A stretch of DNA of 43,693 nt. Source: Isosphaera sp. GTDB lineage: Bacteria; Planctomycetota; Planctomycetia; Gemmatales; Gemmataceae. Made by a program: the position numbers and the translations under genes. The stretch lies in assembly GCA_013822345.1 (NCBI GenBank), contig PNKH01000069.1, positions 1 through 43,693 on the forward strand, in the 5' to 3' direction. This document shows, piece by piece, positions 41,782-43,693 of the stretch. The notes under the pieces were generated by a model, which did no database searches, was not told the origin of the DNA, and saw only the letters and a list, made by a program, of their open reading frames with translations. Position 1 is the first letter of the stretch. Each line of letters begins with the position of its first letter.

Positions 41782-42921
41782 GTGCGGAAGCACCTGTCCG
41801 TGATGCTGGCCGCGTGCGGGGCGGCCGTCGCCCTGCTCCCGGCCCGGCCGTCGGTCGCCCAGCCCGCCCCCGCCGCCGACCCGAAGGCGCTGGCCGAGAA
41901 TGCCGCCGGGTTCCTGAAGAAGTCGCAGAACGCGGACGGCAGCTGGGGGAAGGAGCCGCAGAACCGCGGGGTGACCGGGATCGTCGTCGCCGGGCTGATC
42001 CGGACCGGGACGAAGCCGGACGAGGCGCCGGTCGCCAAGGGGGTGAAGTTCATTGAGGGCCTGGTGAGCAAGGACGGGCACATCGCCGGGAACGACGACA
42101 AGGCGATCCTCATCAACTACACGACCAGCATCAACGTGATGGCCCTGACCGCGGCCGACCCGGACAAGTACAAGGCGGTGGTCGCCGGGGCCGCGAAGTA
42201 CCTGAAGGAGTACCAGTGGGACGAGGCGCGGGGGAAGAAGGAGGACAGCGACTTCTACGGCGGGGCCGGGTACGCCGGGGACAAGTCGCGGCCGGACCTG
42301 TCGAACACCGCGTTCTTCCTGGAGGCGCTGAAGGACGCCGGGGTGAGTAAGGACGACCCGGCGTTCAAGAAGGCGGCGGTGTTCGTGAGCCGGTGCCAGA
42401 ACCTGAAGAGCGAGTTCAACCAGGCCCCGTGGGCGGCGAAGACCAACGACGGGAGCTTCGTCTACACCGGGGCGAACGGGGGCGAGAACCGGCGGGACGA
42501 CGCCGCCCGGACGACCGACATGGGCGGGTACGGGAGCATGACCTACGCCGGGATCAAGAGCCTGATCTACGCCGGGGTGAGCAAGGACGACCCGCGGCTG
42601 AAGAAGGCGCTGGAGTGGGTGGGGAAGAACTACACGCTGGACGCGAACCCGGGGATGCCGGAGGCGAACAGCCAGCGGGGGCTGTACTACTACTACCACA
42701 CGTTCGCGAAGTGCATGGCGGCGCTGGGCGAGGACACGTTCACCGACGCGAAGGGTGTGAGGCACGACTGGCGGGCGGACCTGCTGGCGGCGCTGGCGAA
42801 GCGGCAGAAGCCGGACGGCAGTTGGGTGAACGAGAACGACCGGTGGATGGAGGGCGACCCGAACCTCGTCACCGGGTACGCGCTCTTAGCTTTGTCCCAC
42901 GTTAACAAGCCCCATAAGTAA
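41782..42921 (+). CDS. Exported prenyltransferase/squalene-oxidase-repeat protein
   Basis: A 379-residue protein with a signal peptide (VRKHLSVMLAACGAAVALLPARPSVAQ). The rest has repeats of the alpha/alpha-toroid fold: ENAAGFLKKSQNADGSWGKEPQ, AVAKGVKFIEGLVSKDGHI, AAKYLKEYQWDE, AAVFVSRCQNL, ALEWVGKNYTL, LLAALAKRQKPDGSWVNENDRWMEG. No DxDD or zinc-Cys motif of cyclases or prenyltransferases is found, so it may be non-enzymatic. The start is the GTG at 41782 behind GGAGG at 8 nt. Its stop lies 26 nt before a hairpin. Confidence 0.82.
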   Translation: MRKHLSVMLAACGAAVALLPARPSVAQPAPAADPKALAENAAGFLKKSQNADGSWGKEPQNRGVTGIVVAGLIRTGTKPDEAPVAKGVKFIEGLVSKDGHIAGNDDKAILINYTTSINVMALTAADPDKYKAVVAGAAKYLKEYQWDEARGKKEDSDFYGGAGYAGDKSRPDLSNTAFFLEALKDAGVSKDDPAFKKAAVFVSRCQNLKSEFNQAPWAAKTNDGSFVYTGANGGENRRDDAARTTDMGGYGSMTYAGIKSLIYAGVSKDDPRLKKALEWVGKNYTLDANPGMPEANSQRGLYYYYHTFAKCMAALGEDTFTDAKGVRHDWRADLLAALAKRQKPDGSWVNENDRWMEGDPNLVTGYALLALSHVNKPHK

Positions 42922-42946
42922 CTCCGGAAGGACCAAGAGTACGGCA

Positions 42947-42988
42947 AGCGGGCCCCGGCGGGCGGGTACGGCCCAGCCGGGGCCCGCT
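42947..42988. terminator. 13-bp-stem hairpin, possible terminator
   Basis: Arms 42947-42959 and 42976-42988 pair perfectly around a 16-nt loop, starting 26 nt after the stop of the repeat-protein gene. A small CATTCAG-AA-CTGAATG palindrome follows at 42989-43004. A run of T is missing, so termination is only likely from position. Confidence 0.45.
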
Positions 42989-43016
42989 CATTCAGAACTG
43001 AATGGGTAGCAAGCGG

Positions 43017-43022
43017 TATAAT
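43017..43022 (+). promoter_or_regulatory. Consensus TATAAT, possible -10 element
   Basis: A perfect TATAAT lies 33 nt before the ATG of the DUF4062 gene, in an otherwise GC-rich region. No good -35 hexamer at 16-18 nt is seen; TTCAGA at 42991 is 20 nt away. Support is therefore partial. Confidence 0.35.
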
Positions 43023-43055
43023 GACGTGTAGCCGCAACCGGCAGCGAGAACGCCC

Positions 43056-43693
43056 ATGTCTACCGCACCAGTGGTGTTCGTCTCGTCTACGGTCCACGAC
43101 CTGAAAGACTTGCGGTCGGCTCTTCGGTACTGGCTTGGGGAGTGGGGCTTCTGCTCAAGGTTTTCCGAGTTCAACGACTTCCCCCAACTTCCCGATCTCA
43201 ACTCCTACGACTCGTGCTTGAAGGCCATCGACGAGGCGAACTACTTCGTGCTTCTGATCGGCCATCGAATCGGCGGGTGGTATGACAAAGAGCGGGGTGT
43301 TTCCATCACGCAGAAGGAGTACCAGTACGCCTACGACCGGGCGAGGGCAGGGCAGATCAAAATCATCCCGTTCGTGAGACGCGACCTGTGGACTGTGCTT
43401 CAGGACCGGGGTGACGTGACTCGGGCGGTGCAGAGCGACGTCGCACTCGCTCCTGACACGAAAGCATACCTTGCCGAAGCGTTTGGAGCATACGGGTCAA
43501 AGTTTGCGGACGACGCCAAGCACATCTTCGGCTTTGTCGAGGAGGTGACCCGCAAAGAGGAGATGAGGAAGGCCGGTTCGGCACACACGTCGAGGCCGGC
43601 CGGGAACTGGGTGTACACTTTCGAGACCTTCGGCGAGATCGTAGACACACTTCGGGTACAACTCGGTTTTCGCCACGACTTGCGACAGGAGTC
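43056..43693 (+). CDS. DUF4062 domain protein, N-terminal part (runs off the window)
   Basis: The frame is open from the ATG at 43056 to the right edge, 212 codons without a stop. The N terminus VVFVSSTVHDLKDLRSALRY, then LKAIDEANYFVLLIGHRIGG, QKEYQYAYDRARAGQIKIIPFVR, match DUF4062, a TIR-like Rossmann domain that often heads STAND NTPases and other large signalling proteins. After about residue 140 a linker with KEEMRKAGSAHTS is followed by an unidentified region. Codon use shifts to A/T-ending codons (CTT, TTT, AAA, GCA, TCA), unlike the neighbours, a sign of recent transfer. The C terminus, and so the full function, is outside the window. Confidence 0.72.
   Translation, partial: MSTAPVVFVSSTVHDLKDLRSALRYWLGEWGFCSRFSEFNDFPQLPDLNSYDSCLKAIDEANYFVLLIGHRIGGWYDKERGVSITQKEYQYAYDRARAGQIKIIPFVRRDLWTVLQDRGDVTRAVQSDVALAPDTKAYLAEAFGAYGSKFADDAKHIFGFVEEVTRKEEMRKAGSAHTSRPAGNWVYTFETFGEIVDTLRVQLGFRHDLRQE

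What the first reader, a model, noticed from the sequence alone, without database searches (positions are those of the whole stretch)
43056..43693. Truncated DUF4062 gene with foreign codon use at the right edge
The ORF is open to the edge, has many A/T-ending codons unlike everything else in the window, and starts behind a perfect TATAAT. DUF4062 often heads STAND NTPases, a class that includes immune sensors, so this may be the first gene of an acquired defence locus.
Basis: partly seen in the sequence, partly recalled or inferred. Interest (0 to 1): 0.5.

Follow-up and report, generated by a model that had tools for sequence, protein, structure and literature searches.

The report
Cut-off gene for TIR-like NADase
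The cut-off gene at the edge of this genome piece is probably a recently acquired single-gene bacterial suicide enzyme, of a just-described kind that destroys NAD+ during virus attack, and not the head of a larger immune-sensor protein.

Summary
An ORF with a clear DUF4062 match (E 2.2e-16) starts at 43056 and runs off the window. Its GC is 0.585; the lowest 638-base stretch elsewhere is 0.652. The window is a whole contig, so the gene cannot be extended, and no rest-of-gene was found elsewhere in the assembly.

The STAND-NTPase reading is not supported by the nearest relatives. The five closest full-length homologues found (39-43% identity; plasmids of Methylomonas, Agrobacterium and Rhizobium, a Bacteroidetes MAG, one genome of the same family) are 403-423 aa and carry no Pfam NTPase. 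DUF4062-NACHT proteins exist in the phylum (2 of 23 other matches) but are distant.

DUF4062 was recently shown to be a TIR-like NADase, called Swarozyc in phage defence (preprint PMC13174449). The catalytic Glu of KpSwz aligns with E88 here, and E88 is kept in 29 of 29 distinct relatives examined. A moderate model resembles TIR and nucleoside-glycosidase folds.

Best reading: a solo, horizontally acquired abortive-infection NADase of about 400-425 aa, cut after its catalytic domain. The relatives' C-terminal halves match no Pfam family; that is the one open point.

The parts
43056..43691 (+). 5' part (212 codons) of a DUF4062 TIR-like NADase gene, cut by the contig end
   Evidence: Open frame; Pfam DUF4062 E 2.2e-16; aligns with KpSwz, E 1.8e-5
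43074..43331 (+). DUF4062 domain match
   Evidence: Match place given by the own-genome search with PF13271, 62.2 bits
43317..43319 (+). Codon of E88, predicted catalytic glutamate
   Evidence: Aligns with chain position 84 of KpSwz, an Ala that fits the E97A construct; Glu in 33 of 33 loci, 29 distinct
43389..43613 (+). Region (residues 112-186) beyond the Pfam model and before the last strand and helix of the TIR-like domain; mostly low model confidence
   Evidence: Model secondary structure and pLDDT; residues P181, N184 and W185 invariant in six sequences
43017..43022 (+). TATAAT, possible -10 element without a recognisable -35
   Evidence: Only copy in the window; no promoter by scan; best -35 match 2 of 6
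42989..43004 (.). Perfect inverted repeat CATTCAG-AA-CTGAATG where a -35 would lie; operator role is a guess
   Evidence: Found by repeat search; one place in the own genome
42947..42988 (.). GC-rich inverted repeat (16-nt arms) behind the upstream gene; no T-run
   Evidence: Repeat search; no terminator by scan

Best explanation
The ORF is the 5' half of a horizontally acquired, stand-alone DUF4062 gene whose whole product is probably about 400-425 aa. The window holds the TIR-like catalytic domain (about residues 1-205); the missing C-terminal part of about 200 aa is probably the sensing and oligomerising part. By the mechanism reported for KpSwz, a phage component would bind the C-terminal part, the TIR-like domains would be rearranged, and E88 would then catalyse NAD+ hydrolysis, so that the infected cell dies before releasing phage. 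Shown here: family membership, catalytic Glu, TIR-like fold (moderate model), stand-alone relatives, patchy distribution, foreign composition. Inferred: NADase activity, phage trigger, abortive infection, and length and nature of the missing half.
For: DUF4062 over its Pfam cut-off. KpSwz is the only significant PDB relative (E 1.8e-5; next rows, clathrin, E 0.34 and above). KpSwz catalytic position aligns with E88; Glu in 29 of 29 distinct relatives, four of which also built the profile. Model matches TIR domains: the 3 Foldseek matches with E <= 0.001 are RPS4/RRS1 TIR structures, and VIA-align gives TIR/SPARTA chains Z 10-11. Five closest full-length relatives are 403-423 aa with DUF4062 as the only Pfam family over its cut-off. 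Patchy distribution: 0 of 18 other genomes of the genus, 8 of 95 in the family with own included. The full-length copy in the same family (G464) is also compositionally foreign, GC3 0.573 against 0.884 and 0.886 in its neighbours. Agrobacterium copy lies between LmuA/LmuB and AbiH. Family function: PMC13174449.
Against: The C-terminal half is not in the window and was not found in the assembly. Model quality is moderate (pLDDT 60.1, 83 of 212 residues under 50), and nucleoside N-glycosidases score as high as TIR domains. A PADLOC scan of 10 neighbours of more or less close relatives gave no defence family, and the G464 copy has no defence gene next to it. Of four human DUF4062 proteins tested, only TEP1 was an active NADase (PMC13174449). 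No activity data exist for this subfamily that I found.
Confidence: 0.68

Rival explanations
1. The gene is the head of a long STAND NTPase (DUF4062-NACHT/NB-ARC with repeats).
For: Such proteins exist in the phylum: G161 and G441 have DUF4062 with NACHT in frames of 1277 and 1128 aa. One passage of PMC4452313 names a DUF4062/NACHT/TPR protein in T. azotonutricium. The window cannot exclude it, as the frame is open.
Against: Only 2 of 23 other matches in the phylum sample have such long frames, and they score 22-23 bits with the profile. The five closest relatives align beyond the Pfam domain up to residue 195-209 of the window and end at 403-423 aa without NTPase.
Confidence: 0.06
2. The gene encodes a TIR/nucleoside-glycosidase-like enzyme with a role other than phage defence, for instance nucleotide metabolism or plasmid maintenance.
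For: MilB CMP N-glycosidase and DNPH1 structures score as high as TIR domains. Three of four human DUF4062 proteins showed no NADase activity (PMC13174449). Most neighbourhoods examined show no defence gene. Three of the relatives lie on plasmids, one beside repABC.
Against: The Glu is kept throughout, the nearest characterised relative is an antiphage protein, and one copy lies between Lamassu and AbiH. Patchy presence argues against a core metabolic role.
Confidence: 0.14
3. The gene is a broken remnant, or the contig end is a chimeric join, so that no working protein is made.
For: It stops at a contig end with a sharp change of composition, and the C-terminal half was not found elsewhere in the assembly. 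Two other DUF4062 copies in the family carry a stop inside the matched stretch.
Against: The 212 codons hold no stop and the invariant residues of the subfamily are intact. A full-length copy in the same family is just as foreign in composition. The last 25 bases tested are unique in the assembly, so no repeat explains the end.
Confidence: 0.12

Closest known systems
Swarozyc, KpSwz of Klebsiella pneumoniae (PDB 10wc, 11cq, 11cv; PMC13174449)
   Same: N-terminal DUF4062 TIR-like domain with aligned catalytic Glu; single gene with a C-terminal part in the closest relatives
   Different: Solved KpSwz chain is 326 residues, the relatives here 403-423 aa. The sequence match stops after DUF4062, and a profile of the relatives' C-terminal halves does not list KpSwz at E up to 10. 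Trigger unknown
DUF4062-NACHT STAND proteins (G161, G441; human TEP1, NWD1 by PMC13174449)
   Same: DUF4062 domain
   Different: No Pfam NTPase in the five closest full-length relatives
Canonical TIR NADases (SPARTA TIR-APAZ, plant TIR, SARM1)
   Same: Similar fold of the model, Z about 8-11
   Different: Pfam TIR_2 only at E 0.057, under its cut-off
Nucleoside N-glycosidases / deoxyribosyltransferases (MilB, DNPH1)
   Same: Fold of the model, Z 10-11
   Different: Sequence family is DUF4062

Membership tests
DUF4062 (PF13271) TIR-like NADase domain family | Pfam model over its curated cut-off | tested here: met
   60.2 bits against 24.7, profile 2-82 of 82
DUF4062 (PF13271) TIR-like NADase domain family | Conserved catalytic Glu (E97 of KpSwz) | tested here: met
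   E88 aligns with the mutated position; Glu in 29 of 29 distinct relatives
DUF4062 (PF13271) TIR-like NADase domain family | TIR-like fold | tested here: met
   Model pLDDT 60.1; Foldseek E 8.2e-5 to RPS4 TIR, VIA Z 10.9. Moderate model; glycosidase folds are tied
DUF4062 (PF13271) TIR-like NADase domain family | NAD+ hydrolysis | not testable with these tools
   Needs an assay
Swarozyc (KpSwz-type) | Stand-alone protein: DUF4062 plus C-terminal auxiliary domain | tested here: inconclusive
   Met in five full-length relatives as to layout; the window's own C-terminal part is cut off
Swarozyc (KpSwz-type) | HTH/winged portal-binding auxiliary domain | tested here: inconclusive
   Relatives' C-terminal profile does not list KpSwz and no Pfam family is over its cut-off; no usable model of that half
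Swarozyc (KpSwz-type) | Phage protection, trigger by phage portal | not testable with these tools
   Needs an experiment
Swarozyc (KpSwz-type) | Defence-island setting (frequent, not obligatory) | tested here: inconclusive
   Left side: 10 genes, one weak hit to the MnmA-like gene; right side not available
STAND NTPase with DUF4062 head | NACHT/NB-ARC NTPase domain downstream in the same ORF | tested here: inconclusive
   Absent from the five closest full-length relatives; present in two distant phylum members; the window's frame is cut

The most novel reading that the evidence does not exclude
The gene belongs to a separate class of single-gene, Swarozyc-like defence, so far seen in five full-length members in three proteobacterial plasmids, a Bacteroidetes MAG and the window's own family. 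Its C-terminal sensor of about 200 aa would be unrelated to the portal-binding winged domain of KpSwz and would recognise a different phage trigger, and its TIR-like domain would be set apart by the stretch before the last helix with a conserved NW pair.
Probability: 0.3. Interest if true: 0.5.

Novelty: new member of a known kind. Interest (0 to 1): 0.33.

Why it matters
It moves the annotation from 'possible STAND sensor' to a probable NAD+-destroying abortive-infection protein of a family characterised in a 2026 preprint. It also points to a small set of complete relatives whose unassigned C-terminal halves are candidates for a new phage sensor. For the window itself it is a truncated member and not a new system.

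Tried and rejected
Extension to the right: the window is the whole contig. The C-terminal half was sought in the own genome with one relative's protein (nothing at E up to 10), with the full-length profile (only the window itself) and with a C-terminal profile. One search gave one match, E 0.016, inside a 67,397-base contig away from its ends; that frame is a YhcG/DUF1016 nuclease, so it was rejected. All these searches begin with a loose first look and may miss a diverged half. A 25-base pattern ending 21 bases before the contig end has no second copy at up to 2 mismatches.

Empty site: the upstream cyclase-like gene has matches in 37 of 37 genomes. In 14 loci of 13 same-genus genomes (of 18 others) no DUF4062 gene lies in the 5.7-10.2 kb downstream. 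The mannosyltransferase gene is kept beside it in 7 of 14, but what follows differs, so no shared right flank defines an insertion site. For the G464 copy, the LacD-like gene was not seen in the short flanks (about 1.5 kb or less) of RibBA in 7 of 7 other genomes, so that attempt failed too.

Phage-borne copies: none in 50,697 phage records at E 1e-5; 35 pattern matches in viral contigs, none confirmed. PADLOC and NCBIfam list no family for the window protein or the four relatives scanned. The single-sequence model of P0003 was useless (pLDDT 34), so the fold of the C-terminal half is unknown. KpSwz did not appear among the rows shown; that library ends in April 2026, so nothing follows. A paper search for 'Swarozyc' returned 0 papers although PMC13174449 is held, probably because of an accented spelling. 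ARAGORN found no tRNA in the window. The DNA upstream of the ORF (42919-43060) has no full match in 40 relatives; one 31-base match in G014.

Full report
What is there. The ORF starts at 43056 and is open to the window's end. The window is the complete contig C69 of a 226-contig, 7.47-Mb assembly, so the gene is cut by the assembly. It is the only DUF4062 match found in this genome and covers positions 2-82 of the 82-position Pfam model. GC3 is 0.755 against 0.898-0.989 in 26 other ORF calls (those were picked by codon use, so the contrast is somewhat inflated). Free of gene calls, the last 638 bases have GC 0.585 and the lowest such stretch ending before 42900 has 0.652. TATAAT at 43017-43022 is the only copy in the window but has no -35. 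A perfect inverted repeat, found at one place in the genome, lies where a -35 would be. That it is an operator is only a guess.

Distribution. None of the 18 other genomes of the genus searched has a match, with the single protein or with the profile A1. In the family, 8 of 95 genomes match A1, own included, and only G464 matches along nearly its full length (2-418 of 422). In a phylum sample 22 of 392 genomes match, own included. The upstream squalene-hopene-cyclase-like gene has matches in 37 of 37 genomes. In 14 loci of 13 same-genus genomes different DNA follows it, with no DUF4062 gene in the 5.7-10.2 kb held. This fits a recent acquisition at a variable junction; no clean empty site was obtained.

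Full-length relatives. Methylomonas (423 aa), Agrobacterium (419), Rhizobium (417), Bacteroidetes MAG (403) and G464 (419) match the window at 39-43% identity over 195-205 alignment columns. DUF4062 is the only Pfam family over its cut-off in each of them; the Bacteroidetes protein also has a TIR_2 match under its cut-off (E 1.2e-4). Their C-terminal halves, scanned apart at E up to 5, give only a PhoU match at E 0.12 in one of five. By contrast the two longest frames of the phylum sample, G161 and G441, carry DUF4062 with NACHT over its cut-off (only the parts held in the loci were scanned). So the scan can see an NTPase where there is one; these two score 22-23 bits with the profile, against 367 for the window, which is itself a row of that profile.

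Contexts. The Agrobacterium copy lies between LmuA/LmuB (Lamassu) and AbiH, with a CBASS phospholipase annotated further along. The Rhizobium copy lies between a hypothetical gene next to repABC and an integrase. The G464 copy lies between a LacD-like aldolase and RibBA (names by my reading of the translations, not searched), with GC3 0.573 against 0.884 and 0.886. Of ten neighbourhood proteins there, itself included, the third gene upstream matches PADLOC mad2 (E 4.6e-22) over about a third of its length and has weak methyltransferase hits, and one other gene has two weak hits. Ten neighbours of six other loci (L082-L085, L011, L012) matched nothing; the neighbours of the Bacteroidetes copy were not scanned. 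A clear defence neighbourhood is thus seen in one relative only.

Catalysis and fold. KpSwz is the one significant PDB relative (E 1.8e-5; clathrin rows at E 0.34 and above are chance). PMC13174449 describes an E97A construct starting at residue 15. The Ala at chain position 84 aligns with E88 of the window, and an offset of 13 gives residue 97; that this Ala is the mutated residue is inferred from the numbering. The Glu is kept in all 33 loci examined, 29 of them distinct by my comparison of places; four of these also built the profile. The model from a two-sequence alignment is moderate (pLDDT 60.1, pTM 0.63, 83 of 212 residues under 50) with alternating strands and helices and a last helix at 192-202. 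The three Foldseek matches with E up to 0.001 are RPS4/RRS1 TIR structures. VIA-align puts MilB N-glycosidase and TIR/SPARTA chains together at Z 10-11, so the fold alone cannot tell TIR from nucleoside glycosidase.

Mechanism. Of PMC13174449, a preprint, I read the abstract, outline, the first two of six parts of the text (Introduction and Results up to the tomography section) and the figure legends, not the Discussion or supplement. [quoted passage not shown] coli with broad protection most notable for two, that protection by the Klebsiella one needs the Glu and the auxiliary domain, and that a phage portal triggers it. It also reports about 20% of bacterial homologues in predicted defence islands and spread by horizontal transfer. 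The same chain of events is the best-supported proposal here, with the trigger unknown. Against it stand the missing half, the tie with glycosidase folds, and the inactivity of three of four human DUF4062 proteins.

Verdict. The STAND-NTPase reading is not supported by the nearest relatives, though the cut frame cannot exclude it. What remains open lies in the relatives' C-terminal halves, which could be an undescribed sensor.

Noticed in passing
42989-43004: Perfect inverted repeat CATTCAG-AA-CTGAATG just upstream of TATAAT, at one place in the genome; possible operator.
   Followed up: partly
42947-42988: GC-rich inverted repeat with 16-nt arms behind the cyclase-like gene, without a T-run.
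   Followed up: partly
L010:3674-16585: Agrobacterium plasmid pAtAF1_95 carries Lamassu LmuA/LmuB, the DUF4062 gene, AbiH and an annotated CBASS phospholipase in one stretch.
   Followed up: partly
L100:10554-11954: Third gene upstream of the G464 copy matches PADLOC mad2 (E 4.6e-22) over about a third of its length.
   Followed up: no
L030 and L031: DUF4062-NACHT proteins in two genomes of the phylum (G441, G161); the G441 one also has an N-terminal helix-turn-helix match.
   Followed up: no
L091:618-1907: The own genome encodes a YhcG/DUF1016 PDDEXK nuclease on another contig, C32.
   Followed up: no
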